A DNA stretch of 64,000 nucleotides from the NCBI RefSeq assembly GCF_900109525.1, contig NZ_FOAN01000003.1:496001-560000 (forward strand), written 5' to 3'. The DNA is from Allobosea lupini. GTDB lineage: Bacteria > Pseudomonadota > Alphaproteobacteria > Rhizobiales > Beijerinckiaceae. Of this stretch, positions 4,714 to 64,000 are shown piece after piece. The notes under the pieces are model-generated. The model had not been told where the DNA came from. It did not search any database and saw nothing but the letters and a program-made list of their open reading frames with translations. The translations under genes and the position numbers were made by a program. Position 1 is the stretch's first letter, and every line of letters begins with the position of its first letter.

Positions 4714-4774
4714 GAGGTTCCCCACCACCCGATCAAATCTCGCTGGCTGGGGACGAGGCCGTGGCTCGCGAGGT

Positions 4775-4798
4775 CACACTGAACGATCCTACAGTGTG
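4775..4798. promoter_or_regulatory. Inverted repeat between receptor and IclR-type genes
   Basis: Arms CACACTG (4775-4781) and CAGTGTG (4792-4798) are perfect complements separated by 10 bases. The site lies about 60 bases upstream of the receptor start and 200 bases upstream of the IclR-type start, where an operator would be expected. It does not resemble a Fur, Irr or RirA box that I would recognise. Confidence 0.4.
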
Positions 4799-4996
4799 GG
4801 ATGCATTCCGCATGTCAACATGAAGCGAGCACAGGATCGCCGTATTGCCGTACCGCTGTGCTTTTCCGGTCGCAGTTCTCGGGCTGCGCAGCGCAGTGTT
4901 TGGAAGCGCTCGAATGAGGCGGTGCTTGTCGCCGGCAGGCTCCCGGTGTCACAAAGCGCGGGCCGGCATCTGCCGCGCTTTCCCGCCGCGATTCGC

Positions 4997-11106: not shown

Positions 11107-11150
11107 GCTGCGATCGGGCCTGCCAAGATGGCTGCCATAGTGGCTGACAA

Positions 11151-11169
11151 TCAATTGCAAATTAATTGA
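11151..11169. promoter_or_regulatory. AT-rich inverted repeat upstream of the Dpp-like operon
   Basis: TCAATT (11151-11156) and AATTGA (11164-11169) are perfect complements with a 7-base spacer. The site is in the 227-base gap between the siderophore permease and the dipeptide-type binding protein, about 165 bases before the latter. It could be an operator or promoter element for that operon; the GntR-type regulator encoded downstream is one candidate binder. Confidence 0.3.
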
Positions 11170-11333
11170 GCAGAATTTTGCCAAATGTATGCAACGACGA
11201 GAGCGAAAGCTCGCTGATAGAGATAAGCCCATTGTTATCAAGGGGGTGTGAACCGGCACGGTAACTGCATCGGCTTCTCCGAGGTGAAGCGTTCGGGCCT
11301 TTGACGGCTCCGGCAGCAATCGGGGAGAGCACA

Positions 11334-12923: not shown

Positions 12924-13002
12924 CGACGCAGGAAACAGCCCGTCATGCCGGGGCGCGCCGCCCGCGCGAACCCGGCCTGACGGCAGCAGCGGAGGCTTCC
13001 CC

Positions 13003-47946: not shown

Positions 47947-50493
47947 TCAGATGGTCGTGGCGACCACGCCTTTGCCGAGCGCGCGAGCGAGATAAGGCGC
48001 GGTGCGGCTCGCCCGGCAGGCCGCGACCGTAGCCGGCGGGCCGCTCGCGACGATCCCGCCGCCCTCGTCGCCGGCGCCGGGCCCGATGTCGATCACCCAG
48101 TCGCTCGCCGCCGCGACCTTCATGTCGTGATCGACCAGGACCACGCTGTTGCCGGCATCGACCAGGGCGTGGAGCTGGCCGAGCAGGCGCTCGACATCCG
48201 TCGGATGGAGGCCGGTCGTCGGCTCGTCGAGCACATAGAGCGCGCCGCCGCGCTGGGCGCGCTGCAATTCCGTGGCGAGCTTCACGCGTTGCGCCTCGCC
48301 GCCTGAGAACTCGGTCGCGGGTTGTCCGAGGCGCAGATAGTTGAGCCCGACCTCGCGCAGCACCTTGAGCGACCGGCAGACATGGGGCGCGTCGTCGAAG
48401 AATGCCCAGGCGCCCTCGACGGTGAGCGCGAGCACCTCTGCGATCGTCTTGCCGCGATAGCGGATCTCGAGCGTCTTGGGGTTGTAGCGGGTACCGTGAC
48501 ATGTCGGGCAGGGGGCGTAGACGCTCGGCAGGAACAGCAATTCGACCATCACGAAACCCTCGCCCTCGCAGCGCGGGCAGCGGCCCTTGGCGACATTGAA
48601 GGAGAAGCGGCCGGCGTCGTAGCGGCGTTTCCTGGCTTCGGGCGTGGCCGCGAACAGCGCCCGGACATGATCGAATAGGCCGGTATAGGTCGCGAGGTTG
48701 GAGCGCGGGGTGCGGCCGATCGGCTTCTGGTCGACCTCGATCAGCCGCCTGATCCCTTCGAGCCCACCGACGATCCGACCCTCCGTCGCGCCGGCGGGGC
48801 GGTCCTCGAGCGCGGCTTCGGCGTCCCTCTCCTCCTCGGCCGCGACCGGGGCGCCGAGGGCACCGGCGACCAGCTCCACCAGCGCCTGGCTGACCAGGCT
48901 CGATTTCCCCGAGCCGGAGATTCCAGTGACGGTCGTCATCACGCCGAGCGGGATCGCGCAGTCGACCCGCTTGAGATTGTTGCGCGAGACTCCCTCAAGT
49001 CGCAGCCACCCGGCGGGCTCGCGGCCTCGGCTCGGCATCCCGCCGCCTTCGTCGAACAGATGGCGCCTCGTCTCCGACGCCCCGACCCCGCGCAGCCCCT
49101 CGATCGGGCCGCTATAGAGAATCTCGCCGCCATGTTCGCCGGCGGCGGGCCCGACATCGACGATCCAGTCGGCACGACGGACGACGTCCATCTCATGCTC
49201 GACCACGAACAGCGAATTGCCGACCGTCTTCAGGCCGTCGAGCGCCCGGATCAGCGCTTCGGTATCGGCGGGATGGAGACCGGCGGACGGCTCGTCCATC
49301 ACATAGACGACGCCGAACAGGTTGGAGACGACCTGGGTGGCGAGCCGCAGGCGCTGCAACTCGCCTGGCGACAGGGTCGGCGTGCCCCGTTCCAGCGTCA
49401 GATAGCCGAGGCCGAGGTCGAGCAGCACCGAGAGCCGGCGGCACAGATCGCCTGCGATGCGCGCGACGACGAGGGCCTTTTCCGGATGGGTCTTGCGCAG
49501 GGCTTTGAGCTTGGGGGCGTTAGCCTCGGCATAGGGCGCGAAGATCGTCGAAAACCGGGCCATCGGCAGGCGGCTCATCTCGGCGAGATCGAGCCCCTCG
49601 AAACGGACCGACAGCGCTTCCCGGCGCAGCCTCTTGCCGTCGCAGACCGGGCAAGGCCGGGCGATCATGAAGCGTGCGGCGCGCTTCTTCATCATCGCGC
49701 TCTGGGTCGTCGCATAGCTGTGGGTGACATGGCGCTTGGCGCTCGAGAAGGTGCCCATATAGGCAGGCTCGATCTTCTGCCGGATCGCGCGCTGGATCCG
49801 GTCATGGTCCCAGCCGGGATAGACCGGGACCTGGGGCTGCTCCTCGGTGAACAGGATCCAGTTGCGGACCTTCTTCGGCAGGTCGCGCCACGGCGTGTCG
49901 ACGTCGACGCCGAGGCTGATCAGGATGTCGCGCAGGTTCTGGCCGCCCCAGGCCGTCGGCCAGGCGGCGATAGCGCGCTCGCGGATCGTCTTGGACGGAT
50001 CGGGCACCATCGAGGCCTCGGTGACCTCGTGGATGCGGCCAAGGCCGTGGCAGCGCGGGCAGGCGCCTTCGGGCGTGTTGGGCGAGAAGGATTCGGCGTC
50101 GAGATGGGCCTGGCCCGGCGGATAGTCGCCGGCACGCGAATAGAGCATGCGCAGCAGGTTCGAGAGGGTGGTGACGCTGCCGACCGAGGAGCGGGTGGTG
50201 GGCGATCCGCGCTGCTGCTGCAGCGCCACCGCCGGAGGTAGGCCCTCGATCTCGTCGACCTCGGGCACTTCCATCTGGTGAAACAGGCGCCGGGCATAGG
50301 GCGAGACCGACTCCAGATAGCGGCGCTGCGCCTCGGCATAGAGGGTGGAGAAAGCCAGCGACGACTTGCCCGATCCCGACACGCCGGTGAAGACGACCAG
50401 GGCGTCGCGCGGAATGTCGACATCGACATTCTTGAGATTGTGCTCGCGGGCGCCGCGAACGCGGACGAAGCCCGAGGCCTTGATGTCTCGCAC
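47947..50493 (-). CDS. UvrA2-like excinuclease ATPase
   Basis: An 848-residue protein, shorter than standard UvrA (about 950), as in the class II UvrA/DrrC group. It has two ABC cassettes (GVSGSGKSS and GISGSGKSS as Walker [16 protein letters not shown] and [16 protein letters not shown] as signatures) and Cys-rich zinc motifs ([35 protein letters not shown]). Start is GTG 50493 with GGAGG five bases upstream. UvrA binds damaged DNA for nucleotide excision repair; UvrA2 proteins give resistance to DNA-binding drugs in some species. No uvrB or uvrC is nearby. Confidence 0.92.
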
Positions 50494-51186: not shown

Positions 51187-51900
51187 TCACGCCGATTGAA
51201 GCGGGCTGGCCGCTCCGTCACGCGCCGTCAGCCGATCAAGGAGGGCCTTCGCACCAGCCTCCGAAGAGGCCGGGTTCTGGCCGGTGATCAGATTGCCGTC
51301 GACGACGACGTAGGGCTGCCAGTCGGCGCCCCTCGAGAACAGTCCGCCGTTTCGCTTCAACTCGTCCTCGACCAGGAACGGAACGATCGCGGTCAGCCCC
51401 ACGGCCTCCTCCTCCGTGTTGGTGAACCCGGTGACGTTGCGGCCCTGGACAAGCGGCTTGCCGTCTGCGGCCCTCACATGACGGAGCACGCCGGGCGCGT
51501 GGCAGACGAGCGCGACGGGCTTGCCTGCCGCTATCGTCGCCTCGATCAGCGCGATCGAGCTGCGGTCTTCCGCCAGGTCCCAGAGGGGCCCATGGCCGCC
51601 GGGATAGAACACGGCATCGAAAGCCTCGTGCGAGACCGTGGCGAGCCGCTCTGTCGCCGCCAGCGCGGCCATGGCCGCAGCGTCGGCCTCGAAACGCCTC
51701 GTGTCGTCGGTCTGGGAATCAGGCTCGGCGCTCTTGGGATCGAGCGGCGGCTGGCCGCCCTTGGGCGAAGCCAGAGTGATCTCCGCGCCCGCGTCCTTGA
51801 AGGCATAGTAAGGTGCCGCCAGCTCCTCGAGCCAGAAGCCGGTCTTGCGGCCGGTGTCGCCGAGGCGGTCGTGCGAGGTGAGTACCATCAGTATCTTCAC
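51187..51900 (-). CDS. DJ-1/PfpI-family protein (glyoxalase III / HchA-like)
   Basis: A 237-residue protein with the catalytic Cys in VALVCHAPGVL and conserved YPGGHGPLWD. The layout (ILMVLTSHDRLGDTGRKTGFWLEE at the start, FTNTEEEAVG, VEDELKRNGG) fits the type 1 glutamine-amidotransferase-like/glyoxalase III group, which turns methylglyoxal into lactate or repairs glycated groups. GTG 51900 is chosen because GAGGAGGAAA lies just upstream; the preceding GTG at 51924 would put that site inside the coding region. It follows the MDR gene by about 24 bases. Confidence 0.87.
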   Translation of the reverse strand: MKILMVLTSHDRLGDTGRKTGFWLEELAAPYYAFKDAGAEITLASPKGGQPPLDPKSAEPDSQTDDTRRFEADAAAMAALAATERLATVSHEAFDAVFYPGGHGPLWDLAEDRSSIALIEATIAAGKPVALVCHAPGVLRHVRAADGKPLVQGRNVTGFTNTEEEAVGLTAIVPFLVEDELKRNGGLFSRGADWQPYVVVDGNLITGQNPASSEAGAKALLDRLTARDGAASPLQSA

Positions 51901-51924
51901 GTCAGTTTCCTCCTCGGCCAGCAC

Positions 51925-52920
51925 TCAGTGCGGGACGGTGACAACGATCTTCCCAAACTGCTCGTTGGATTCCATGTAGACGTGCGCCTTGACGATCTCG
52001 TCGAGCGTGAACGTCTTCGCGACGACCGGCTTCAGGCGGCCTCCGGCGAACCCATTTTCGATGAAAGCTGACGCTCGGGCCAGCCGCTCCTTGTCACGGA
52101 CGAATTCGAACAGGGTATAGCCGCGCAGCGTCAGCGCCTTCTGCATGGCCGCGATGATCGGGAACGGCGTAGGCGCGGCGGCGAGCGCACCGTAAATGAA
52201 GAGGACGCCATCGCGGCTCATCGCCTCGGCCAGCCTTTCCACCTGCGGTCCGCCGACCGGATCGAACACGAGGCGCGCCCCCTTGCCGCCTGTCGCGCGG
52301 TTGATCCCGGCCACCAGATCCTGCTCGGAGGTGACGACAACATGCGCGGCGCCCAAGTCTTCCAACGCCGCAGCCTTGGCGCGCGTGCGGGTCGTCGCGA
52401 TCGAGATCGCGCCGACGCTGTTCGCGATCTGGATGGCAGCGAGTCCGACGCTCGAGGACGCCGCCGTAACGACGACCGCGTCGCCTTCTCCGAGATGACC
52501 GATGTCGATCAGTGCACCCCATGCCGTGAGGTAGGCCATCCATATCGCCGCTGCCTCTATTGCCGATGCGCCGCTTGGGCGCCGCATGACGGCGTATGCC
52601 GGCACGATGGCCTTGTCGGCATAGACGCCGTAGTCGTTCATGGAGAAGGCCGGGATGACGCTGACCGGATCGCCTGGCGCGAAGCCGGTGACGCCGTCTC
52701 CAAGAGATTCGACCGTGGCAGAGGCTTCGTAACCGAGACGTGCCGGCAAACGCGGCGCTTCCAGGTAGGCGCCCGACCGGAACATCGCTTCGGCGCGGTT
52801 GAGACCGATCGCCTCGACGCGAACGCGCATCTCGCCTGGTCGCGGATCGCCGACCGGGAGGTCATCAAACTGCATCACATCCGGTCCGCCGGTGCGATGA
52901 AACCTGACCATGCATGTCAT
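51925..52920 (-). CDS. Zinc-free MDR oxidoreductase, NADPH:quinone-reductase-like
   Basis: A 331-residue medium-chain reductase: N-terminal GroES-like domain (GEMRVRVEAIGLNRAEAMFR, LGYEASATVESLGDGVTGFAPGD), then a Rossmann domain with VVVTAASSSVGLAAIQIANSVGA and LVFDPVGGPQVERLAEA. No zinc-ligand cysteines are visible, so quinone/enone reduction with NADPH is likelier than alcohol oxidation. ATG 52920 with AGGGG upstream is chosen over a longer frame. It stands in the same minus-strand run as the DJ-1 proteins, consistent with carbonyl stress. Confidence 0.88.
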   Translation of the reverse strand: MTCMVRFHRTGGPDVMQFDDLPVGDPRPGEMRVRVEAIGLNRAEAMFRSGAYLEAPRLPARLGYEASATVESLGDGVTGFAPGDPVSVIPAFSMNDYGVYADKAIVPAYAVMRRPSGASAIEAAAIWMAYLTAWGALIDIGHLGEGDAVVVTAASSSVGLAAIQIANSVGAISIATTRTRAKAAALEDLGAAHVVVTSEQDLVAGINRATGGKGARLVFDPVGGPQVERLAEAMSRDGVLFIYGALAAAPTPFPIIAAMQKALTLRGYTLFEFVRDKERLARASAFIENGFAGGRLKPVVAKTFTLDEIVKAHVYMESNEQFGKIVVTVPH

Positions 52921-53017
52921 GGCGATGCGCCCCTTCAGTCGGAACGAAGCGAGAAATGCGTGTGCCTCACTCTCGCCAGGCCGCTCGCCATCTGGCGGGA
53001 GCAGCATGACCGCCGCT

Positions 53018-53587
53018 TCAGGCCGCCGGCGCTACATGCCCTCGCGCGTCCGCGAACAGCTTGATGGTCTCACGGTTGAAAGCGGGCATGTCGTCGGCGC
53101 TGCGGCTGGTGACGAGGCCTTGGTCGACGACGACCTCCTCGTCGACCCAGTTGGCCCCGGCGTTCTTCAGATCGGTCTTGAGCGAAGGCCACGATGTCAT
53201 GCGGCGGCCGTGCGCCGCGCCCGTCTCGATGATCGTCCACGGGCCATGGCAGATCGAGGCGACGGGCTTCTTGGCGTCGAAGAACGATTTGGCGAAGGCC
53301 ACGGCCTTGACGTCCTCGCGCAGCGCGTCCGGGTTGATGACGCCGCCGGGCAGGAGGAGCGCGTCGTAATCCTGGGGATTGGCGGAAGCGAGCGGGACAT
53401 CGACCGGATAGCTGCGGCTCCAGTCGGTGAAGTCCCAGGCGAGGACCTTGTTGGGCTTCGGCGAAATCAGGCTGGTCTGGGCGCCGGCTTCGTCGAGCGC
53501 CTTGCGGGGCTCGGTCATTTCGACTTCCTCGAAACCGTCGGTGACGAGGATCGCGACGTTCATTCCCTTGAGCGTGTCGCTTGCCAT
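53018..53587 (-). CDS. PfpI-family protein (DJ-1 superfamily)
   Basis: A 189-residue protein with the PfpI pattern: NVAILVTDGFEEVEMTEPRKAL, DALLLPGGVINPD and the nucleophile elbow ASICHGPW. Members are described as proteases, glyoxalases or deglycases. ATG 53587 is chosen because AAGGAG lies upstream. It is the second DJ-1-type protein within 2.5 kb and follows the formaldehyde dehydrogenase gene by about 150 bases on the same strand, so a role in aldehyde stress is plausible. Confidence 0.9.
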   Translation of the reverse strand: MASDTLKGMNVAILVTDGFEEVEMTEPRKALDEAGAQTSLISPKPNKVLAWDFTDWSRSYPVDVPLASANPQDYDALLLPGGVINPDALREDVKAVAFAKSFFDAKKPVASICHGPWTIIETGAAHGRRMTSWPSLKTDLKNAGANWVDEEVVVDQGLVTSRSADDMPAFNRETIKLFADARGHVAPAA

Positions 53588-53738
53588 TGATGATCTCCTT
53601 CGAGCCGGGCGCGGCTGGGGCAGGTCGCCATTGGGAGAGGTCGCGGACGCGCGCACCGAGGGGCTTGGCGTGCGCGCCCGCTGTTTCGGCGGAATGAAGC
53701 GCCCAGGGGCACGGGCGCGGGAGGCATCCGCCGACCAC

Positions 53739-54938
53739 TCAGGCTACCAGTTTCGTGGTGTTGTGCGGATCGATGACGAACTTCTTGGGCGAGCCCTGGT
53801 CGAAGATGCGGTAGGCTTCTGGCGCCTTTTCGAGGGGGATGACCTCGACGTTCGCGAGCTTGCCGAGATACGGCATCCGGTCCCAGAGGATCGCCATCAT
53901 CAGATCGCGGTTGTAGTGCATGATCGGAGCCTGTCCGGCCGAGATATGCGGCGACTTGATCCAGGCCTTGCCGAAGTCGATGCGATACCGCCCGGCCTTG
54001 GCATCCTCGTCGATCGCCTCGCTGTCTCCCGCCGTGTAGATGCCGGGCGCGCCTATCGCGCCGTTGGCGCGAACGACCTCGATCAGCGAATTGAGCACTG
54101 CGGCCGGATCCTCGCCTGCGCCGGGGCCGTTTCCATGGGCTTCGAAGCCGACAGCGTCGACGCCGCAATCCACTTGCCGCTGGCCGAGAATGGCCTCGAT
54201 CTGGTCGGCGAGCGGCGTCGAAGAGGACACGTTCACGGTCTCGTACCCCGCGCTCCTGACCAGGGCGAGACGCTCGTTGTTGGTGTCCCCCACGATGATG
54301 CAGGAGGCGCCGAGGAGATGGGCGGAGGCCGCGGCGCAACGGCCGACCGGGCCGGCGCCGGCGATGTAGACGGTCGATCCGGGCTTGACGCCGGCCTGGA
54401 TGCAGCCGTGAAAGCCGGTGGGCAGAATGTCGGAGAGCAGGGTCAGGTCCTTGATCTTCGCCATGGCCTGATCCTTGTCGGGGAACCGAAGCAGGTTCCA
54501 GTCCGCGAACGGAACCATCAGGTAGTCGGACTGCCCGCCCTGCCAGCCGCCGAGATTGAACCCGTAGGCGCCGCAATCGGCCTCGTCGTTCACGTTCATG
54601 CAGGTGTCGGTATGGCCTTCCTTGCAGTTGCGGCAGCGCCCGCACGAGACATTGAACGGGACCGAGCAGAGGTCGCCCTTCTTGATGAAGTGCACATCGG
54701 GGCCGGTCTCGATCACCTCACCCGTCATCTCGTGGCCGAGCACCATGCCCGAGGGCGAGGGAAAACGGCCGCGGTAGATGTGCTGGTCACTGCCGCAGAT
54801 ATTGGTGGTGACGATCTTCAGGATCGCCCCGTGGGGCGTCTTGTTGCCCCTGGGATCGACGAGCTTGGGATAGTCGTAGGTTTCGACTTTGACAGTCCTC
54901 GGTCCCATATAGGTGACCGCACGATTACCTGAGGCCAT
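53739..54938 (-). CDS. fdhA: Glutathione-independent formaldehyde dehydrogenase
   Basis: A 399-residue zinc MDR enzyme. The catalytic zinc site is in TTNICGSDQHIYRGR and GHEMTGEVIE, and structural zinc Cys residues are in VSCGRCRNCKEGHTDTC. The Rossmann motif VYIAGAGPVGRCAAASAHLLGA follows. The conserved N-terminus NRAVTYMGPRTVKVE matches the Pseudomonas putida type enzyme, which oxidises formaldehyde with bound NAD. It links this region to C1 or aldehyde detoxification, beside PfpI proteins and the MEDS-domain protein. Confidence 0.92.
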   Translation of the reverse strand: MASGNRAVTYMGPRTVKVETYDYPKLVDPRGNKTPHGAILKIVTTNICGSDQHIYRGRFPSPSGMVLGHEMTGEVIETGPDVHFIKKGDLCSVPFNVSCGRCRNCKEGHTDTCMNVNDEADCGAYGFNLGGWQGGQSDYLMVPFADWNLLRFPDKDQAMAKIKDLTLLSDILPTGFHGCIQAGVKPGSTVYIAGAGPVGRCAAASAHLLGASCIIVGDTNNERLALVRSAGYETVNVSSSTPLADQIEAILGQRQVDCGVDAVGFEAHGNGPGAGEDPAAVLNSLIEVVRANGAIGAPGIYTAGDSEAIDEDAKAGRYRIDFGKAWIKSPHISAGQAPIMHYNRDLMMAILWDRMPYLGKLANVEVIPLEKAPEAYRIFDQGSPKKFVIDPHNTTKLVA

Positions 54939-55005: not shown

Positions 55006-55305
55006 TCAGGGCAGCTTCGCCGCGAGCACGTCGAGCTTGTCGATGCGGGGGGACGAGGCGAAAAGATCGGGCGCCTTCTCCATCAGGGCCGCCGCGACGA
55101 GGCCGGAGAGATGCGCGTCGCGTCCCGCCTCATCGCGAAACACGTCGAAGATCCCGAAAGTCGAGGGACCCATGCGGACGCCGAACCACGCTATGGTTCC
55201 GGGCTCGTTCTCGACGAGCGGCTGGCCGCTTCGCAGAAATGCCTCGACCTCCGCCTCCTTTCCGGGCTTGGCGTCCATGGTGACGAGAAGCGCAAACTTG
55301 ACCAT
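55006..55305 (-). CDS. Small ABM-domain protein (antibiotic biosynthesis monooxygenase/YgiN-like)
   Basis: A 99-residue protein with the ferredoxin-like ABM fold pattern (MVKFALLVTMDAKPGKEAEVEAFL ... EPGTIAWFGVRMGPSTFGIFDVFRDEAGRDAHL). Many such proteins act as quinol monooxygenases or small oxidoreductases, others only bind. It lies 67 bases upstream of the formaldehyde dehydrogenase gene on the same strand and could be in the same transcript. Function is at family level only. Confidence 0.85.
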   Translation of the reverse strand: MVKFALLVTMDAKPGKEAEVEAFLRSGQPLVENEPGTIAWFGVRMGPSTFGIFDVFRDEAGRDAHLSGLVAAALMEKAPDLFASSPRIDKLDVLAAKLP

Positions 55306-55771: not shown

Positions 55772-56419
55772 CTATCCCCGATAGGAGCGGCTCGGTCCGG
55801 TGCGCAACTGGACCTCGCGAATGAAATCCTGCGGGCGCGTGAAGAAGCTGTTCTCGACGAAGACGCCGCCGATGATAACCATCGGATGCGTGCGCAGGAT
55901 ATCGATGGCGTGCGGCACCGTCAGCAGATTGGCGTCGAAGGTGCAGATCACCGGGTCGTCGTAATTGGGCAGGACGCTGTTGAGCCGCATCTCGTATTCC
56001 ACCCAATCGTTGCTGCTCTTCCAGTCGTCGACCGCCGCCTCGGCATGCGCGATCATCCGCGTCAGGGGAAAGCCGAGATCGGCGCCGGCCTTCAAGGCCT
56101 CCTGGATGAGGACGAGCATGGCGTCCTTGTTGAAACGCGCGGTCCTGAGATAGGTGTCCTCCGGCACGGCGACCTCAAGCTGGCGGGTCTTCATCACCCT
56201 CTCGACATCGATCCCGGCGATGCGCAGCCGCTGGAAGTGATCCTCCTTATGGTGATCGGGGAGGACATGATAGGCGCGATGGCCGCAGTTGATGCCGTCG
56301 CAGATGAACGGGAGCAATGTCTCGTATTCTTCCACCGCCGAACTGAAGAATGTGCAGACATGCCGGTGCTCGCGCAGCATGCTTCCTCCGAAAGCAATGG
56401 GCTGGGCCGTCGAACTCAT
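55772..56419 (-). CDS. MEDS-domain (DcmR-sensory-type) protein
   Basis: A 215-residue protein whose MEDS-domain pattern is seen in HVCTFFSSAVEEYETLLPFICDGINCGHRAYHVLPDHHKEDHFQRL and the end HAIDILRTHPMVIIGG with FFTRPQDFI. MEDS domains, named for methanogen and methylotroph DcmR sensors, are predicted to bind small hydrocarbons or halogenated compounds and often sit with kinases. Here the domain stands alone with no helix-turn-helix. GGGGGAGA precedes the ATG. The upstream GAF gene stops one base before this gene's start, so they are coupled. Confidence 0.85.
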   Translation of the reverse strand: MSSTAQPIAFGGSMLREHRHVCTFFSSAVEEYETLLPFICDGINCGHRAYHVLPDHHKEDHFQRLRIAGIDVERVMKTRQLEVAVPEDTYLRTARFNKDAMLVLIQEALKAGADLGFPLTRMIAHAEAAVDDWKSSNDWVEYEMRLNSVLPNYDDPVICTFDANLLTVPHAIDILRTHPMVIIGGVFVENSFFTRPQDFIREVQLRTGPSRSYRG

Positions 56420-56420
56420 G

Positions 56421-56996
56421 TCAGTCTCCCCCGATGCGATCTTCCAACATAGTCCGGTGTGGCGCCGATCTTTCGCTCTTTACGAGGCGGTCGGCGATCT
56501 GGACGGCGAGCCGGTCGAGCGGAGCGAGATCGAACGCGCTCTCCTTTTGCGTGGCGCGAAAATGCGTCGAAAGCCCACCCCAGAGACGGCTATTGCTGCT
56601 GATCAGTGGCGTTGACTGCACGGCGGCAACGCCGCCGGCGCTCAACATGGCGAGCTCGCGCGTGCCCACGAACAGATAGCTCGTCGAGATGTCCTCGACG
56701 AAGACGCGCATGCGACGCGCGAAGGCGGCGGCGCAACTCGTATTGGTGTCGCGGCGCACGATTACGAAAAAGCTCAAGGACTGTTGCGAGAATCCGCGGC
56801 TGGCGATGAGTTCGAGACAGTCGGTGCTTTCGTCGAAGCGCTGCAGGGTGCCCATGTCGGCGCCCGTCATCCCGATCGCCATGTCGAGGACCGGCATCAG
56901 GTCCGAGCTGCGGTCCCTGGCGTTGTTCAGCCGCGCAAAAGCGGCGTCGACCCGTCGGCCGGTCTCGGCTGCGAGCGGCCTGGTGCGTTTTGCCAT
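56421..56996 (-). CDS. Stand-alone GAF-domain protein
   Basis: A 191-residue protein from ATG 56996 with GAGG upstream. Residues about 30-175 form a GAF domain (DMAIGMTGADMGTLQRFDES, GTRELAMLSAGGVAAVQSTPL, SSNSRLWGGLSTHFRATQ). No output domain is present, so it probably modulates a partner, such as the MEDS protein that follows it in the operon or the histidine kinase encoded divergently. A 28-30 base dyad lies upstream of it. Ligand unknown. Confidence 0.82.
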   Translation of the reverse strand: MAKRTRPLAAETGRRVDAAFARLNNARDRSSDLMPVLDMAIGMTGADMGTLQRFDESTDCLELIASRGFSQQSLSFFVIVRRDTNTSCAAAFARRMRVFVEDISTSYLFVGTRELAMLSAGGVAAVQSTPLISSNSRLWGGLSTHFRATQKESAFDLAPLDRLAVQIADRLVKSERSAPHRTMLEDRIGGD

Positions 56997-57519
56997 TCGT
57001 CGATCCTCACGCCGACGGTGCTGCGCCTGCGGCCGCGCGAACGAAAAATGTGATCGAGGACGGAGACGGCGGCCATTAAGCAATTTTGCGTAATGGCCGT
57101 CTTCGCCACGCCCGTAGACCATTGTCAGAACGAACAGTCGGCGCCATGCGGGCAGATATCTGCACGCGTGGCTTGAGGCAGGTGGACGGATGAATCCCGA
57201 CCAGAGGCTAGCGAGTGACGACAGCCCCCTTGCCGAACCGCCGGCCCGCGCCTCTGCGATCAATTCCTTGGGCAATCGACGCGGGAGGTGTATAGTCTAT
57301 TCAGGATGCGTTTTCCGCGCGACCGGCCTTTCCGCCGCCTCGATGTCGTCGACAGACACGGACAATGGCGCTCCCGGTCCTTGCGTAACCATTTAGTTCG
57401 CAATTGCGGATGGCGCGTCGCCATCCGGCAAATCCGGATGTGAATCTCTGCCGCGCGACTTCGGCGTTCTGGACAGACGCTGAAGATCCGATGTGCGTCC
57501 TGTATTGGGATCAGGCGGA
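56997..57519. other. Divergent intergenic region with a large dyad
   Basis: About 520 bases separate the divergent GAF gene and the histidine-kinase gene. The only strong structure is the dyad at 57070-57099. A 68-codon frame at 57190-57396 has no recognisable domain or good ribosome site, and I do not call it a gene. The stretch around 57380-57420 is AT-rich by local standards and may carry the kinase promoter. Confidence 0.5.
57070..57099. promoter_or_regulatory. Near-perfect 30-base palindrome upstream of GAF-MEDS genes
   Basis: GGCCATTA (57071-57078) pairs with TAATGGCC (57091-57098), inner GCAA (57080-57083) pairs with TTGC (57086-57089), and outer C/G at 57070/57099 also pair; only one pair mismatches (A57079/G57090). 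It lies about 75 bases upstream of the GAF-gene start, in the divergent region with the histidine kinase. It is a strong candidate for the FixJ-like regulator's operator. Confidence 0.5.
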
Positions 57520-59223
57520 ATGCTCCGGGTCGATGAGCTTTTCGAGCCGCTGGAGCTCAGGCACTGCATTCGCGATCTCGTCGCGCTCTCGACGCTGCCT
57601 GCGATCTGGAAGGACTACAGCGCGCGGCAGATCGCCGACAGCGTCGCCGCCGCGTTGATGTCGATGCTCGATGCGGACGTCGTCTATATTTCCGTGCCGG
57701 CGCTGCGCGACGAAGCCGCGGTCGATGTCGTCCGAACGGGCCTGCGAGTGCCCGCTGGATCACTGAGCGATGTCGAACGCAGCCTGCGCGACGCGTGGCG
57801 TGGCACCCGCGAGCAGACATTGATGATCGGCAGTCCGTTCGCGGAGGGAACGCTGCACATCGCAGCGGTGCCGATGGGCTTTGGTGGCGATGCCGGGATC
57901 ATGGCCGGTTCGCTCGATTCGCGATTTCCGAACGAGACGCATCGCCTGCTGCTCGGCATCGCGGCAAGCCATGCGACGCTCGCGATCCAGCGCTGGCACG
58001 TGGAAGGTCAGCGGCGGCGCATGGTGACCCTGATCGAGCGATCGTCGGAGTTCGTCGGCTTCGCCGGTCTTGAAGGCCGGGTGCAATATCTGAACACGGC
58101 CGGCTGCGAACTCCTCGGGCTCTCCGGCATCGAGGAAGCGCAGCGGCTGTCGATCTTCGAATTTCTCTCGCCGCCGGATCGGGTGCGCGCACATCAGGAG
58201 CTGATGCCGCTGGTGGAGGCGAGCGGCCGCTGGCTCGGCGAGCTCAATTTCCGCCACTTCAAGACGGGGGAGGACATTCCCTTCCTGGTCGACTGGTTCC
58301 GCATCGACGACTTTCGCACGGGCCGCCCGATGAACATGGCGACCGTCAGCCGCGACCTGAGAGGTCAGAGAGAACTCGAGGAGAATCTGCGACGCCTGAA
58401 CGAATCGCTGGAGCAGCGCGTATCGGACCGGACATCGGAGCTGGCGGAGGCGCTCGAACGGCTGACGCTCGAGGCCAAGGAGCGCCAGCGCGCCGATGTC
58501 CGCGCGCAGGAACTGCAGGTGGAGCTGCTTCATGCCTCCCGGCTGAGTGCCGCCGGGCAGATGGCCGGCGCCTTGGCGCATGAATTGAACCAGCCGCTGA
58601 CGGCATTCACCAATTCCGTCAACGCCGGGCGCCGGATGATGGCCAACGGCGCACACAGGGTCGAGACCATACGCGACGTGCTCGACGAAGCGGCTGGCCA
58701 GGCGCTTCGCGCCGGCGAGATCATCCGGCGTCTGCGCGAGTTCGCCACGCGCGGCGAGACGGACATGCGCATCGAACGACTGCCTGATTTGATCCGCGAA
58801 GCCAGCGATCTCGCCTCGGCGGGCACCGGTGCGCATGGCGTGCAGGTCCGGCTGAGTTTCGATCCGCGCGCCGAGGCCGTGTCGGGAGACCGGATCCAGC
58901 TGCAGCAGGTCGTGCTCAACCTGATCCGCAACGCGCAGGATGCAATGGCGGATAGCGAGCGGCGCGAGTTGGATGTGGTTACGGCGCGGCTCGACGACGG
59001 GTCGATCGAGATCGCGGTCGCGGATCGTGGCTCGGGGCTGTCGGACGACATCGTCGAGCACTTGTTCGAGCCGTTCCACACCACGAAGAGCAATGGCATG
59101 GGTTTGGGCCTCTCGATCTGCCGGACGATCGTCGAGGCCCATGGCGGCAAGCTGCGATACGAGCCGAACCAGGGCGGTGGCGCGATCTTTCGCGTGACGC
59201 TGCCTGTCCCCCCGGAGCGATGA
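57520..59223 (+). CDS. GAF-PAS histidine kinase (FixL-like HisKA type)
   Basis: A 567-residue kinase without clear membrane segments. Its parts are a GAF-like N-terminal domain (about 15-160), a PAS domain (about 172-280, LIERSSEFVGFAGLEGRVQYLNTAG), a coiled coil, HisKA with H354 in ALAHELNQPLTAF, and HATPase with the N box NLIRNAQDAM and GMGLGLSICRTI. ATG 57520 is used; GTG 57493 is possible. It should autophosphorylate and pass phosphate to the FixJ-like regulator 7 bases downstream. The cytoplasmic layout fits sensing of a small molecule or redox state; no haem ligand is evident. Confidence 0.92.
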   Translation: MLRVDELFEPLELRHCIRDLVALSTLPAIWKDYSARQIADSVAAALMSMLDADVVYISVPALRDEAAVDVVRTGLRVPAGSLSDVERSLRDAWRGTREQTLMIGSPFAEGTLHIAAVPMGFGGDAGIMAGSLDSRFPNETHRLLLGIAASHATLAIQRWHVEGQRRRMVTLIERSSEFVGFAGLEGRVQYLNTAGCELLGLSGIEEAQRLSIFEFLSPPDRVRAHQELMPLVEASGRWLGELNFRHFKTGEDIPFLVDWFRIDDFRTGRPMNMATVSRDLRGQRELEENLRRLNESLEQRVSDRTSELAEALERLTLEAKERQRADVRAQELQVELLHASRLSAAGQMAGALAHELNQPLTAFTNSVNAGRRMMANGAHRVETIRDVLDEAAGQALRAGEIIRRLREFATRGETDMRIERLPDLIREASDLASAGTGAHGVQVRLSFDPRAEAVSGDRIQLQQVVLNLIRNAQDAMADSERRELDVVTARLDDGSIEIAVADRGSGLSDDIVEHLFEPFHTTKSNGMGLGLSICRTIVEAHGGKLRYEPNQGGGAIFRVTLPVPPER

Positions 59224-59230
59224 GCGCAAG

Positions 59231-59848
59231 ATGGCCGATGCCAGGTTCGTTTATGTCGTCGATGACGATCCGGCCATCCGCCGGTCGCTGGAACGACTCC
59301 TGGATGCCGCCGGCTTCCGCGTGACGTCCTTCGCCACGCCGGCGGCCTTCCTCGGCGTCGCGGACGACCTGGCCATGGGCTGCGTGATGCTCGATCTGCG
59401 CATGCCGAAGATGGACGGCTTCGAGGTCCTCGCTCGCCTCCTGCAGCTGAACCCGGACTTGCCGGTCATCGTGATAACGGCACAGGGCGACGTCCAGACC
59501 GCTGTCCGAACGATGAAGGCGGGAGCGGTCGATTTCATCGAGAAGCCCTACGGCGACGACGCATTGATCGCGGCGATCGAGGCCGCGCTGAACACGGGTG
59601 CGACGAAGGGGCGAGCCGATGACGTCGTGGCGGCGTCCCTCCTGGTCGATTCGCTCAGTCCGCGTGAGCGGGAGGTGCTCGAGGCGCTGGTGGCGGGGCA
59701 ACCGAACAAGATCATCGCCTTCAGTCTCGGCATCAGCGTGCGCACGGTCGAGGTTCACCGCTCGCGCATGATGGACCGTCTGGGCGTGCGTCAGCTCGGC
59801 CAGGCCGTCCGCCTTTCGGTTCTCGCGAGCCTTGCCAAAGCGGTGTGA
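59231..59848 (+). CDS. FixJ-like response regulator
   Basis: A 205-residue protein with an intact receiver (acidic cluster VDDDPAI, Asp55 in MLDLRMP, Thr83, Lys105) and a LuxR-type winged helix (LSPREREVLEALVAGQPNKIIAFSLGISVRTVEVHRSRMMDRLGV). It is the cognate partner of the upstream kinase. The targets are likely the divergent GAF-MEDS genes, whose upstream region holds a 30-base dyad, and the tandem-repeat protein that follows. Confidence 0.93.
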   Translation: MADARFVYVVDDDPAIRRSLERLLDAAGFRVTSFATPAAFLGVADDLAMGCVMLDLRMPKMDGFEVLARLLQLNPDLPVIVITAQGDVQTAVRTMKAGAVDFIEKPYGDDALIAAIEAALNTGATKGRADDVVAASLLVDSLSPREREVLEALVAGQPNKIIAFSLGISVRTVEVHRSRMMDRLGVRQLGQAVRLSVLASLAKAV

Positions 59849-59950
59849 GCCCGCTTTTTAGCGCCCTGCCATGACGTATTCGCGAGGTTGAATCCGGCCG
59901 GCGGTCACCTACCTTCGTGGCTGAAGCGAATGGCAAGAGGACATGGGCTT

Positions 59951-60445
59951 ATGAGCCTTCTTCCCCGCGTGAGCGAGCTGACCCGGGAATGCGTGTCGAG
60001 GCAATTCGACGAGCTGGGTCCAGAGGCCTGCATGGGAGACATCACCGACGTCCTGAGGCGCGAAAATCCAGAACTTCTGGAGATGGCCCGCAAATGCGCC
60101 GCCGATATCGGCGATGCACCGAGGATCATGGTCGGCTTCGGCATGTTCTACCAGCTGCTGATCACGGCATCGGCCGATGCCGCCGGCAGGCCGGTCATGC
60201 ACGCCCTGCCGAGTGTCACGGCCGAGACGCGCGACGCTCTGGTGCGAGAGATCGACGAGTCGGGCCCCGATGCCTTCACGATCACGGCGATTGGAGAGCT
60301 CGAACGCAGCAACCCCGAGCTGATGCAGATGGCGCATGGTTTTGCCTCGCGTCAACGCGATTATGGGCGGGTCATGCAGGGATTTGCCCTGCTCTACAGA
60401 TCGCTCGACGCACAATTGGCGGCAGACAGGACATATCTGCACTGA
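59951..60445 (+). CDS. Unrecognised protein made of two tandem copies of one domain
   Basis: A 164-residue soluble-looking protein from ATG 59951 (ATG 59930 is possible). Residues 9-70 and 89-151 are repeats: both have L-x-R at the start, a GP-x-A segment, R-x-NPEL-x-x-MA and then GF-x-x-x-Y-x-x-L, for example NPELLEMARK against NPELMQMAHG. I do not recognise the domain. No signal peptide or membrane segment is seen. It follows the response regulator by about 100 bases on the same strand, so it may belong to that regulon. Confidence 0.75.
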   Translation: MSLLPRVSELTRECVSRQFDELGPEACMGDITDVLRRENPELLEMARKCAADIGDAPRIMVGFGMFYQLLITASADAAGRPVMHALPSVTAETRDALVREIDESGPDAFTITAIGELERSNPELMQMAHGFASRQRDYGRVMQGFALLYRSLDAQLAADRTYLH

Positions 60446-60511: not shown

Positions 60512-60940
60512 CTACTGCTGCGGATACTTGAATTCCGGCAATTTCTGCAATCGTTCCTTGCTGCCCTGTGCGAGGACGATCTTCGAGCCATCCCCGCTGA
60601 TCTCCAGGGCGGGGTAGGGGATCGCGACGAGGTGCGCGCCGAGACCGAGAAATCCGCCGATCTGAAGGATGGCGAACAGAACCTTCTCCCGGTCGACGAT
60701 CAGGTCGCTGATCGAGCCGATGCGCTCCCCGGCTCCGTTTTGGACATTGGAGCCGGAGAGCTTCGAGGCGCGGTAACCCTTGGCGACCTCCTTTACATCG
60801 ACGTCGAGCACCACGACGCTCTGCGAGAATGCCGGTCCTGTGCCGTATGGCATCAGGACGGCGGCCGTCAGCATCGTGATCGAGGCGGCTGCGAGCGCGC
60901 GGTGGAGTCGGCGGCGTAGGGCGTCGCTATTGGGCTGCAT
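60512..60940 (-). CDS. Exported PRC-barrel domain protein
   Basis: A 142-residue protein from ATG 60940, with GGAGG upstream. The N-terminal segment (ALAAASITMLTAAVLMPYG, cleavage near AFSQ) looks like a signal peptide. The rest has PRC-barrel features (YRASKLSGSNVQNGAGERIGSISDLIVD, VLFAILQIGGFLGLGAHLVAIPY). Such small exported PRC-barrel proteins are common in alphaproteobacteria and often stress-induced; the role is unknown. It converges on the tandem-repeat gene. Confidence 0.85.
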   Translation of the reverse strand: MQPNSDALRRRLHRALAAASITMLTAAVLMPYGTGPAFSQSVVVLDVDVKEVAKGYRASKLSGSNVQNGAGERIGSISDLIVDREKVLFAILQIGGFLGLGAHLVAIPYPALEISGDGSKIVLAQGSKERLQKLPEFKYPQQ

Positions 60941-61075
60941 CACGAGACCTCCGGTTCTTGAACGATGCCTGCGCGCGGGGGCAGTGGCTTTGCGCGGCGT
61001 CGAGGGTGCCGACAAGGTGAACTGAGACCGTCGCGACCGCCGTGACGGGTGTCAGTTTTTCGCGCCAGCGCGCAC

Positions 61076-61618
61076 TCAGCGCGCCGGCGCCAGCGCACCC
61101 ATCTCGTCTTGGATCGATGCGGCGAGCTCCGGCGCCGAGAACCCGCCCTGATGACGCACGCCGTTGACGAAGAAGGTCGGCGTTCCGTTGACGCCGCTGC
61201 GAATGCCGCCGATGAAATCCTCGCGGATCCTGTCCGCGTGCAACGAGCGGGCGATCGAATCCCGAAGGCCCATCTGCGACAACTGCAACGTCCCGGCCAG
61301 GGCAAACAGCAGCTGCGTGCTCAGCCGGTTGTTGTTGGAGAAGATCGCATCATGCATCTCCCAGAACCGGCCGTGATCGCCGGCATATTCCGCAGCCTCC
61401 GCCGCCGGTGCCGCGAGCGGATGGACCTCGACCAGCGGGAAATGCCGGAAAACGACCGACAGGGCCGGGCCGAAGCGGCTCTCCAGGAAGCGGACGACCG
61501 GATGGGCGGCCGCGCAATAGGGACATTGGTAGTCGCCGTATTCGACCAGCGTGACGGCCGCGTTGGGCCCGCCGCGGCGGTGGTCACGCGGGCTGACGGG
61601 AACTTTGAGCGTCGACAT
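61076..61618 (-). CDS. Cytoplasmic DsbA-family thiol oxidoreductase
   Basis: A 180-residue protein without signal peptide. It has the thioredoxin-fold CPYC motif (Cys32, Cys35) in EYGDYQCPYCAAAHP and the cis-Pro loop GVNGTPTFFVNG. This group (thioredoxin_4/FrnE-like) acts on thiols in the cytoplasm or is fused to antiporters in some bacteria. Its start lies inside the 3' end of the peroxiredoxin gene, overlapping by 35 bases, which suggests coupled translation. It likely serves redox stress with its neighbours. Confidence 0.88.
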   Translation of the reverse strand: MSTLKVPVSPRDHRRGGPNAAVTLVEYGDYQCPYCAAAHPVVRFLESRFGPALSVVFRHFPLVEVHPLAAPAAEAAEYAGDHGRFWEMHDAIFSNNNRLSTQLLFALAGTLQLSQMGLRDSIARSLHADRIREDFIGGIRSGVNGTPTFFVNGVRHQGGFSAPELAASIQDEMGALAPAR

Positions 61619-62096
61619 GATTCTGCTCCAGGTTTGGCATCTGGTCGAGGGCGTCGAGAATGCCGTCCGCGCCGGGATTGACCGCGACCGGAGACAGGTG
61701 GCTCCATGCGATCATGCCGTGCTGATCGATGATGAAGAGAGCGCGGGCGCTCTCGCCGACATCGTCGCGGTAGGCGCCGTAGGCGCGCGAAACCTCTCCC
61801 TTCGGATGGAAATCGGCCAGCAGCGGAAAATGCAGGTTCCGGTCGCGGGCGAAGGCCTGATGGCACCACGGGCCGTCCACGGAGATGCCCACGAGGTCGG
61901 CGCCTTTCTTGCGAAACTCCGTCAGCACGTGGTTGTAGAGCGTCATCTGGTCGCCGCAGACCGGGCTCCAGTCCGCCGGGTAGAAGGCCAGGATCAGGCG
62001 CCGCCCGGCGAATTCGGACAGGGACAGGGTCTGGTCGGGCGTGACGCGAAGCGTGAAGGCGGGCGCTTTCGTGCCGGATGCGAGAATTGTGGCCAT
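61584..62096 (-). CDS. Peroxiredoxin, AhpC/TSA family
   Basis: A 170-residue protein starting at ATG 62096 with AAAGGA upstream. Family features are APAFTLRVTPDQTLSLSEFAG, LILAFYPADWSPVCGDQM with the peroxidatic Cys, and GISVDGPWCHQAFARDRNLHFPLLAD. It reduces peroxides, probably with thioredoxin. It overlaps the DsbA-like gene by 35 bases, so they are co-translated. A second Cys (DGPWCHQ) could resolve the disulfide. Confidence 0.9.
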   Translation of the reverse strand: MATILASGTKAPAFTLRVTPDQTLSLSEFAGRRLILAFYPADWSPVCGDQMTLYNHVLTEFRKKGADLVGISVDGPWCHQAFARDRNLHFPLLADFHPKGEVSRAYGAYRDDVGESARALFIIDQHGMIAWSHLSPVAVNPGADGILDALDQMPNLEQNHVDAQSSRQPA

Positions 62097-62118
62097 GTCT
62101 AGATCCTTTCCCGATCGC

Positions 62119-62730
62119 TCAGGCCGCGCCGGAGGCGGCGAGATTGCCCGGCAATCCGGTTCGGTGGGATCGCAGCCTGTACGCCAGCACCAGAAGCGTG
62201 CCGCCCAGCACGAGCGCATGCGCGCCGGTCCAGAAGGTGAGCACCAATGCGCCGATGAACGGCGATATGACGAGGAGAACCCCGAGCACGATGCTGGCGA
62301 TGCCGCCGATCACCAGCCAGACACGGCCATGGTCGATCTTGAGCCGGAAAGCCGAGATCAGCATGAGCGTGCCCGATATCAGCGCCCATGCCGCCATCAG
62401 GAGGACGAAGGCCAGCACTGTGAGGCCGGGCCACAGCGCCGCGACGACGCCGGCGGCGATACCGAAGATGCCGCTCAGCAGCAGCCAGACCCAGCGCTCG
62501 CCCTTTCGCGCTCCCCGCACCGACATGACGATCCCGAAGACGCCGTCGACGATGCTGAAGGCGGCGAAGACGAAGACCAGCGACAGCATCGTGACGACCG
62601 GCATCGCAAAGGCGGTGATGCCGAACAGGATCGCGACCGCGCCGCGCAGCGCGACGGCCCACCAGTTATCGGCGAGCATGTCGTTCATCGCCTGGGTTTT
62701 CGCGCCGTCATTCACAGGGAGATCCGTCAT
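62119..62730 (-). CDS. HdeD-like membrane protein (DUF308)
   Basis: A 203-residue protein with six hydrophobic segments and the repeat pattern typical of HdeD/DUF308 (NWWAVALRGAVAILFGITAFAMP, FAAFSIVDGVFGIVMSVRGARKGERWVWLLLSGIFGI). HdeD is linked to acid resistance at high cell density in E. coli; in other bacteria its role is not known. It precedes the peroxiredoxin gene by 22 bases on the same strand. Confidence 0.88.
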   Translation of the reverse strand: MTDLPVNDGAKTQAMNDMLADNWWAVALRGAVAILFGITAFAMPVVTMLSLVFVFAAFSIVDGVFGIVMSVRGARKGERWVWLLLSGIFGIAAGVVAALWPGLTVLAFVLLMAAWALISGTLMLISAFRLKIDHGRVWLVIGGIASIVLGVLLVISPFIGALVLTFWTGAHALVLGGTLLVLAYRLRSHRTGLPGNLAASGAA

Positions 62731-62894: not shown

Positions 62895-64000
62895 TCAGGC
62901 CGCAAGCCCGTTGACCTCGACGAGCTCCGCCCTGACCCCGTTCACGATGCGAGCTGCGTCGTCCTGCGACTTCCCGCACAGCAACAGCGCCCGGTCCGCA
63001 AGCGCGAGGCCGGCCGCGAGGTTTTCCGGAAAGACCGCGGTCGCCTCGAGGCGCGCGAAGTGCGCCATGTCGAGATCGTCGGCGGTCGACACCAGGGATG
63101 CCGGCCCTGGCTCGATCGCCCTGACCCGGTGCAGGATGCTTTCCACCGTGTTCAGATGATCGAAGGTGATCGCGACCAGAAGGGCCCGGTCCAGACCCGC
63201 CGCCTCGAGAATGCGGTGATGTCTCGCATCGCCGAAGACGACCTCGTGACCTTGGCGGCGAGCCGTCCGGAATCGGGGCAGATCCGTCTCGATGGCAATA
63301 TACGCAATCCCCGCGGCTTCCAGGACGGTCGCTACGAGCCGGCCCACGCGACCACAGCCACACAGGATGACGTGATCATGCAGGCTGCCGCTTTGCATGC
63401 GAATCGATGCCTCTGTGGCGGCGATGCGACGTTCGCGACGGTCGAATAGCCATGCGGCCCAATGGTTGCGCTGGATCAGGAGGGGGGCGAACCCCATCGT
63501 CAGGGCAAGCGCGATCAGCGCCGGTTGGCCCAGCGCCGCCGGCACCAGGCCGGACTGGAGGGCGAGCGATGTCAGCAGCAGCCCGAACTCGCCGCCATGT
63601 GCCACGATAACGGCGGTCCGCGCGGAGGCCTCACGTGGCGCCCCGGCAATCAGGCCGGTCACGAAGGCCACGAGCGGCTTCGCCAGAACGAGCACGAGCA
63701 GCCAGACAACGATCATGCCGGGAAAGCTCGCTGCAGCCGACGTGTCGATGCCCATGCCAACCGTGATGAAGAAGAGGCCTACGAGCACGTCACGGAATGG
63801 CCGGATGTCTTCCTCGACCCGATGACGGAATTCGCTCTCGCCGATGACCATGCCCGCGACGAAGGCTCCGATCGGCGCAGGCAGCCCCGCCAGATGGACG
63901 ACATAGGCGGTGCCAAGTGCGGTCATCAGCGCCCACAGCAGGAAGAGGTCGGCGGAGCGCGACTTGAGCACCCAAGAGAAGCCGAGACGGATCAGAGGCC
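62895..64000 (-). CDS. Kef-type cation/proton antiporter with TrkA-N domain (5' partial)
   Basis: The frame is open to base 64000, so the N-terminal membrane part lies beyond the window; GTG 63971 is internal. The visible part has the last antiporter helices (GTAYVVHLAGLPAPIGAFVAGMVIGESEFRHRVEEDIRPF) and a RCK/TrkA-N domain (HVILCGCGRVGRLVATVLEAAGIAYIAIE, VFGDARHHRILEAAGL). KefB/C proteins export potassium under electrophile stress, controlled by glutathione adducts. This fits the aldehyde- and redox-stress genes nearby. Confidence 0.9.
   Translation of the reverse strand, partial: PLIRLGFSWVLKSRSADLFLLWALMTALGTAYVVHLAGLPAPIGAFVAGMVIGESEFRHRVEEDIRPFRDVLVGLFFITVGMGIDTSAAASFPGMIVVWLLVLVLAKPLVAFVTGLIAGAPREASARTAVIVAHGGEFGLLLTSLALQSGLVPAALGQPALIALALTMGFAPLLIQRNHWAAWLFDRRERRIAATEASIRMQSGSLHDHVILCGCGRVGRLVATVLEAAGIAYIAIETDLPRFRTARRQGHEVVFGDARHHRILEAAGLDRALLVAITFDHLNTVESILHRVRAIEPGPASLVSTADDLDMAHFARLEATAVFPENLAAGLALADRALLLCGKSQDDAARIVNGVRAELVEVNGLAA

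What the first reader, a model, noticed from the sequence alone, without database searches (positions are those of the whole stretch)
55772..60445. Sensory module: MEDS, GAF, GAF-PAS kinase, FixJ-like regulator and a repeat protein
Two divergent groups place stand-alone MEDS and GAF sensors opposite a cytoplasmic kinase and its regulator, followed by an unknown tandem-repeat protein. MEDS proteins are tied to sensing of small hydrocarbons. The whole looks like an undescribed sensing system, possibly for a volatile or C1 compound, close to formaldehyde dehydrogenase.
Basis: partly seen in the sequence, partly recalled or inferred. Interest (0 to 1): 0.58.

Follow-up and report, generated by a model that had tools for sequence, protein, structure and literature searches.

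The report
Mobile self-regulating MEDS-GAF kinase module
Four neighbouring genes (two free-standing sensor proteins, a sensor kinase and its gene switch) travel together between soil bacteria with their own private DNA control site, and usually land beside genes for repairing chemical and oxidative damage; the fifth gene in the original claim belongs to a different group.

Summary
The five genes exist but are not one unit. Four (GAF, MEDS | kinase, regulator) form a rare, horizontally scattered module: the same divergent layout occurs at 50-81% identity in five other genomes, none with the repeat protein (REP). REP instead neighbours a PRC/DsbA/AhpC/HdeD/Kef stress block.

New here: a 22-bp near-palindrome (window 57074-57095), resembling FixJ boxes, lies about 78 bp before GAF-MEDS. 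Its pattern occurs exactly in 1 of 397 order-level genomes, the one with the module, and at the module in all six GAF-containing copies. Weaker copies lie before HdeD and between a Crp/FNR gene and AhpC-DsbA or PRC in some module genomes. I read it as a FixLJ-type cascade that drives its own accessory sensors.

A general C1 role is not supported: formaldehyde dehydrogenase was not found in 4 of 6 other module genomes. Commoner neighbours (UvrA-like, ABM, HdeD, Crp-type) suggest electrophile, oxidative or DNA-damage stress (inferred). MEDS models as a KaiC-like fold without a P-loop, a relation already in print.

Verdict: new variant of a known kind; ligand unknown.

The parts
55772..56419 (-). 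stand-alone MEDS protein, 215 aa
   Evidence: PF14417 103.9 bits; 75-81% identical in five other module copies; KaiC-like model without P-loop
56421..56996 (-). stand-alone GAF protein, 191 aa, one base upstream of the MEDS start
   Evidence: PF01590 above cut-off; 46-66% identical in five module copies
57074..57095 (.). 22-bp near-palindromic operator CATTAAGCAATTTTGCGTAATG, about 78 bp before the GAF start
57520..59223 (+). soluble PAS-HisKA-HATPase sensor kinase with an N-terminal region that Pfam does not name
59231..59848 (+). FixJ-like response regulator (REC-GerE); best FixJ-model match in its genome
59951..60445 (+). REP, mostly helical internal-duplication protein; neighbour, not a member of the module
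60512..61015 (-). PRC-barrel protein (stress block, convergent with REP)
61076..61618 (-). DsbA-like thioredoxin (stress block)
61584..62219 (-). AhpC/TSA peroxiredoxin (stress block)
62119..62730 (-). HdeD-like DUF308 membrane protein (stress block)
62895..63971 (-). Kef-type antiporter (stress block)
55006..55305 (-). ABM-domain protein (neighbour, recurrent beside the module)
53739..54938 (-). glutathione-independent formaldehyde dehydrogenase-like (neighbour)
53018..53656 (-). PfpI/DJ-1-type protein (neighbour)
51925..53007 (-). zinc-type quinone oxidoreductase (neighbour)
51187..51924 (-). second DJ-1/PfpI protein (neighbour)
47947..50493 (-). UvrA-like protein, 848 aa; its relative directly follows MEDS in four other module copies

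Best explanation
A mobile, self-contained FixLJ-type module. A cytosolic PAS kinase phosphorylates the FixJ-like regulator (inferred from domains). The regulator binds the 22-bp operator before GAF-MEDS and raises those two proteins (inferred; the operator itself is shown). MEDS, a KaiC-like domain without a P-loop, and GAF then act as ligand-binding accessory sensors that tune the kinase or its partner in a feedback loop (inferred from the MEDS-kinase gene pairing). In several hosts the regulator also reaches a Crp/FNR regulator, AhpC-DsbA or PRC, and HdeD through weaker operators, as FixJ reaches FixK. The biological job is most likely defence against reactive small molecules (electrophile, oxidative or DNA-adduct stress), inferred from the neighbours and from what other MEDS regulators answer to.
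For: Divergent GAF-MEDS | HK-RR conserved in 5 other loci: GAF 50-65%, MEDS 75-81%, HK 63-80% (in three frames in L032), RR 64-76%. Operator found in all 6 GAF-containing copies; each copy ranks first in leave-one-out scans, window 26.1 against 14.9 as best of 20 shuffles and 4.0 for the next real site. Pattern at 0 mismatches in 1 of 397 genomes; at 0-1 mismatch only at the module in the 6 such genomes, whose sites shaped the pattern. No canonical FixJ over cut-off in the window's genome. Untrained operator-like sites before HdeD (L094, L089), between Crp and AhpC (L093, L101) and between Crp and PRC (L094, L089); the Crp-AhpC form occurs in only those 2 of 14 genomes, not in 7 UvrA-bearing genomes without the module. 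Kinase core within 4 kb of MEDS in 22 of 26 loci. L047 keeps MEDS with an orthologous HK (56%) and RR (61%) without GAF. FixJ boxes in print, TAAGTAATTTCCCTTA and GTAMGTAG, resemble the operator.
Against: No binding, phosphorylation or ligand data. The secondary sites are weak (scores 8-25); shuffled tracts reach 21.6. The window itself has only the one operator, and L047 has none at its module. Canonical FixJ is present in 5 of 7 module genomes and could bind the secondary sites there. The L032 kinase is split over three frames. That MEDS acts on the kinase rests on gene order alone. Four of 26 MEDS loci lack a kinase core within 4 kb. G470 has none of the HdeD, AhpC, DsbA, PRC or Crp genes in the roughly 60 kb searched.
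Confidence: 0.55

Rival explanations
1. Five-gene C1/formaldehyde sensing system, as first proposed: MEDS senses a C1 compound and controls the neighbouring fdhA.
For: fdhA lies 0.8 kb from MEDS here, with ABM between. In G213 a MEDS-GerE (DcmR-like) gene lies about 2 kb from an fdhA homologue (89%), with PfpI/DJ-1 (85%) and UvrA-like (94%) homologues beside it. DcmR answers to dichloromethane (recalled, and cited in PMC11507031).
Against: fdhA not found at E<=1e-60 in 4 of 6 other module genomes. No operator at fdhA. REP never travels with the module.
Confidence: 0.12
2. The four genes are ordinary cargo of a stress-gene hot spot: a FixLJ-like system of unknown target with two unrelated small sensor genes, kept together only by co-transfer.
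For: Islands with HdeD, PRC, AhpC, DsbA and Kef recur with and without the module. UvrA-like genes occur without MEDS in 9 examined loci.
Against: Shared operator between the two gene pairs, unique per genome. MEDS-kinase pairing in 22 of 26 loci, across several phyla by record title.
Confidence: 0.22
3. MEDS works by partner switching, as in RsbA-type anti-sigma factors, and not through the kinase.
For: Weak RsbA_anti_sig match, 31.3 bits against a cut-off of 210.
Against: No HATPase domain is attached to this MEDS, and no sigma or anti-sigma gene was seen among the family hits that name the neighbours.
Confidence: 0.06

Closest known systems
FixL-FixJ-FixK cascade of Alphaproteobacteria
   Same: Soluble PAS kinase plus FixJ-type regulator, FixJ-like palindrome, and a Crp/FNR gene as probable target in some hosts.
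   Different: Below the FixL (301 of 850) and FixJ (218 of 255) cut-offs; occurs where canonical FixJ is absent; main target is its own GAF-MEDS pair.
EtnR1/EtnR2 of ethene-oxidising mycobacteria
   Same: A stand-alone MEDS protein (EtnR2) beside a regulator, with suspected positive feedback (passages of PMC8784404).
   Different: EtnR1 is a CdaR/PucR-type protein; no FixLJ-type kinase and regulator.
DcmR-type MEDS-HTH regulators
   Same: MEDS as input domain. G213 has a MEDS-GerE fusion beside the same UvrA/fdhA/PfpI genes, with its HTH 58% identical to the module RR over 62 aa.
   Different: One-component fusion; here MEDS is separate and the GerE domain sits on a response regulator.
RsbA family (MEDS plus kinase-like anti-sigma factor)
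   Same: Shares a MEDS-like N-terminal region.
   Different: 31 bits against a cut-off of 210; no ATPase domain.
KaiC/FlaH-type RecA fold
   Same: Predicted MEDS fold: Foldseek 4yds E 3.8e-6; VIA-align Z 15.4, rmsd 2.9 over 180 residues with KaiC 7s65_A.
   Different: No Walker A motif in the MEDS sequence; labelled 'iKaiC' earlier in PMC5847659.

Membership tests
MEDS (PF14417) | profile match above the gathering score | tested here: met
   103.9 against 29.8 bits
FixJ | NCBIfam equivalog NF006900 above 255 bits | tested here: not met
   218.2 bits; 217.6 in the genome search
FixJ | REC plus GerE domains | tested here: met
FixL | NCBIfam equivalog NF041777 above 850 bits | tested here: not met
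   301.4 bits, kinase half only
FixL | haem-binding PAS domain | tested here: inconclusive
   The PAS region matches no FixL chain among 14 hits at E<=5. A histidine after the PDR motif is not kept in all six kinases; the FixL haem site is recalled.
FixLJ-FixK cascade | FixJ-type box before a Crp/FNR gene | tested here: inconclusive
   Present beside Crp genes in L093 and L101 and weakly in L094 and L089; not in the window or L102
RsbA anti-sigma | NF041045 above 210 bits and ATPase domain | tested here: not met
   31.3 bits; no HATPase hit
DcmR type | MEDS fused to a DNA-binding domain | tested here: not met
   MEDS only, 215 aa
EtnR1/EtnR2 | stand-alone MEDS beside a CdaR/PucR regulator and etnABCD | tested here: not met
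   No such gene among the families found near the module
KaiC-like fold | RecA/KaiC fold | tested here: met
   pLDDT 87 model
KaiC-like ATPase | Walker A motif | tested here: not met
   No GxxxxGK[ST] in the MEDS sequence (read)

The most novel reading that the evidence does not exclude
A 'three-component' signalling kind: a P-loop-less KaiC-like MEDS protein, made under the control of the response regulator itself, is an obligatory cofactor of a FixL-like kinase and supplies its ligand specificity. MEDS variants could then be swapped between kinases to retune what the cell detects; L047 pairs an orthologous kinase with a divergent MEDS.
Probability: 0.25. Interest if true: 0.65.

Novelty: new variant of a known kind. 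Interest (0 to 1): 0.45.

Why it matters
MEDS is widespread, but I found no solved ligand or mechanism for it in the papers seen. A small module with a private, well-defined operator gives a direct reporter: fuse the 57074 operator to a reporter and ask which chemicals turn it on. It would also show how FixLJ-type systems can be re-wired from oxygen to other stresses by free-standing sensor proteins.

Tried and rejected
Rejected: REP as a module member. fdhA as a fixed partner. UvrA-like gene as a marker of the module: 12 of 397 order genomes have it, and the nine without a module that I examined show none of the island genes beyond an unrelated kinase and a 36% dehydrogenase hit. Canonical FixJ as owner of the window operator. 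An FNR-box scan found boxes before HdeD (L093, L089) and before AhpC (L047) but none in the window. The promoter/terminator scan gave no more than shuffles.

Led nowhere: the REP single-sequence model was poor (pLDDT 52.5) and was not used for a fold search; a PDB profile search of REP found no convincing relative; hhalign of the kinase N-terminus against the GAF protein failed. The paper searches found no account of this module (open-licence PMC papers only).

Rows dropped: L037 (a stop in the given MEDS frame), L036 (3.4-kb contig), L042, L048 and L051 were left out of alignment A7. L041 and G443 appear to be the same contig (equal length), and the two S. medicae loci are near-duplicates, so 22 of 26 overstates independence.
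Full report
WHAT IS THERE. The window is bases 496001-560000 of contig 11 of a 6.13-Mb genome. Five frames were claimed and all exist. On the minus strand GAF (56996-56421) is followed after one base by MEDS (56419-55772). Divergently on the plus strand lie a PAS-HisKA-HATPase kinase (57520-59223) and a REC-GerE regulator (59231-59848), then REP. Starts were corrected from conserved alignments. The kinase's N-terminal 'GAF' is not supported by Pfam or by profile comparison with the GAF protein. REP is a genuine duplication (halves 39% identical) without a Pfam family.

RARE AND SCATTERED. Neither MEDS nor REP was found in 120 genus/family relatives. In 397 order-level genomes MEDS was found in 11, REP in 4 and the UvrA-like protein in 12; all four REP genomes are among the twelve UvrA genomes. 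The window's genome holds a single MEDS.

FOUR GENES TRAVEL, THE FIFTH DOES NOT. A genome-contig scan with a MEDS alignment gave 21 loci. Five of them carry the same GAF-MEDS | HK-RR layout: Bradyrhizobium sp. Arg816, B. viridifuturi, B. stylosanthis, Rhodopseudomonas palustris 2.1.18 and a Pseudolabrys MAG. None has REP in the stretch held, nor in the wider tracts. A sixth, a Hyphomicrobiaceae MAG (L047), has MEDS-HK-RR in one line without GAF: the kinase is 56% and the regulator 61% identical, but MEDS only 34%. REP instead lies convergent to PRC in three places: S. fredii pNGR234b and G213 (both followed by DsbA, AhpC, HdeD, Kef) and G241 (followed by Kef). In a fourth, G421, REP has only a Kef homologue about 9 kb away.

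MEDS GOES WITH KINASES. Of 26 loci with a stand-alone MEDS (21 and 5 plasmid loci), 22 have a kinase core within 4 kb. The exceptions are L036 (a 3.4-kb contig), L039 (a weaker kinase-like frame does follow), L041 and L042. Some loci are near-duplicates, so the independent number is smaller.

A PRIVATE OPERATOR. The divergent regions share one 22-bp near-palindrome before GAF: CATTAAGCAATTTTGCGTAATG in the window, GATTAAGYAATTYTACGTARTC in the Bradyrhizobium and Rhodopseudomonas copies, GATTACGTAAAAATACGTAATC in Pseudolabrys. Dyad matches are 7-9 of 10, and the outermost base is changed on both sides together in the window copy. With the matrix trained on the other five, each copy is the top hit of its tract; for the window 26.1 against 14.9 (best of 20 shuffles) and 4.0 (next real site). 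The pattern with no mismatch occurs in 1 of 397 genomes, at this module. In the seven module genomes, matches with 0-1 mismatch lie only at the module in six, and none lies at the L047 module; six further matches with two mismatches lie elsewhere, one of them the HdeD site described below. The six sites shaped the pattern, so the informative numbers are 0 of 396 module-less genomes and the uniqueness within each genome. The site resembles published FixJ boxes (TAAGTAATTTCCCTTA; GTAMGTAG; passages of PMC4999443; GTACGTAG in R. palustris fixK, passages of PMC13327599). The window's genome has no FixJ above the family cut-off; its best match is the module regulator. So the window site is best read as this regulator's own.

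PROBABLE FURTHER TARGETS. The same matrix, scanned over 436 kb of tracts, found untrained sites before HdeD in R. palustris (25.4) and Arg816 (20.0), between Crp/FNR and AhpC-DsbA in B. viridifuturi (22.0) and Pseudolabrys (13.9), and weakly between Crp and PRC in R. palustris (10.8) and Arg816 (8.1). Other hits above 8, with no evident meaning, are L004 13.1, L092 12.0, L100 10.3, L099 9.1 and L095 8.0. Ten shuffles of the same 436 kb gave on average 0.3 sites above 14, but single shuffled tracts reached 21.6, so it is the recurrence at the same promoters that persuades, not the scores. The Crp-AhpC form was found in only 2 of 14 genomes tested, both with the module, and in none of seven UvrA-bearing genomes without it. 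All four module genomes with such sites also hold a canonical FixJ, which might be the true binder there.

NEIGHBOURS. A UvrA-like gene directly follows MEDS in four of five copies (72-73% identical to the window's, which lies 5.3 kb away). ABM follows it in L032, L033 and L050; in Arg816 an ABM gene lies with fdhA and PfpI about 25 kb off. HdeD lies within about 30 kb in the window, G466, G467, G468 and G469; AhpC-DsbA in the window, G467, G469 and L047; a Crp-type gene in G466, G467, G468, G469, L047 and 7 kb beyond the window's end. G470 has none of these three. In Pseudolabrys an Hsp20-like and a Lon-like frame follow AhpC-DsbA (read by eye). fdhA was not found in 4 of 6 other module genomes. 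In G213 a MEDS-GerE fusion stands beside UvrA, two PfpI/DJ-1 genes, fdhA and ABM. Together this points to reactive-chemical, oxidative and DNA-damage stress rather than to C1 metabolism as such; this is inference from neighbours.

STRUCTURE OF MEDS. The model (17 sequences, pLDDT 87, pTM 0.84) matches FlaH and KaiC (Foldseek 4yds E 3.8e-6; KaiC Z 15.4, rmsd 2.9 over 180 residues) but the sequence has no P-loop motif. The KaiC relation ('iKaiC') is already in a table of PMC5847659 (passage). H20, C22, C159, R176 and H178 are invariant in 17 sequences, a plausible ligand or metal site (inferred).

LIKELY WORKING. Kinase signals to regulator (domain inference); regulator acts on GAF-MEDS (operator shown, binding inferred); GAF and MEDS feed back on the kinase (inferred); some hosts add Crp/FNR, AhpC-DsbA, PRC and HdeD as targets (probable). 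Known parallels: stand-alone MEDS EtnR2, linked to ethene and its epoxide with suspected self-activation (passages of PMC8784404 and PMC11507031), and the DcmR type. The 2005 paper that named MEDS was not seen; it is cited by those papers.

VERDICT. A real four-gene variant of the FixLJ kind, not described in the papers that my searches reached, with accessory sensors and its own operator; the fifth gene and the C1 story do not hold as stated.

Noticed in passing
L030 (G213 C1:63500-83400), 9385-10239(-): MEDS-GerE fusion (DcmR-like) beside a Crp-type gene, UvrA-like, two PfpI/DJ-1 genes, fdhA and ABM: a one-component regulator where the window has a two-component one.
   Followed up: partly
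L032, 3151-4882(-): The module kinase of B. viridifuturi SEMIA 690 is split over three frames: a broken gene or an assembly error.
   Followed up: no
L037, around 4443-5078(-), 5932-6474(+) and 11682-12179(+): A Rokuibacteriota MAG contig with three MEDS-like frames and several kinases within 12 kb.
   Followed up: no
L101 (G469 C67), 9615-13547: AhpC, DsbA, an Hsp20-like frame and a Lon-like frame follow in one direction behind the Crp/operator region.
   Followed up: no
window 47947-50493: A UvrA-like protein (848 aa, shorter than the 924-943-position UvrA models) found in only 12 of 397 order-level genomes; role unknown.
   Followed up: partly
window 59951-60445 and L004, L010, L011, L012: REP, an unnamed mostly helical duplicated family (about 75 aa per repeat, NPEL..MA motif); in 4 of 397 order genomes, all of which also carry the UvrA-like gene.
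   Followed up: partly
L093:14684, L089:805, L047:4636: FNR-type boxes (TTGATNNNNATCAA, 0-1 mismatch) before HdeD and AhpC in module genomes; in L089 about 60 bp after an operator-like site.
   Followed up: partly
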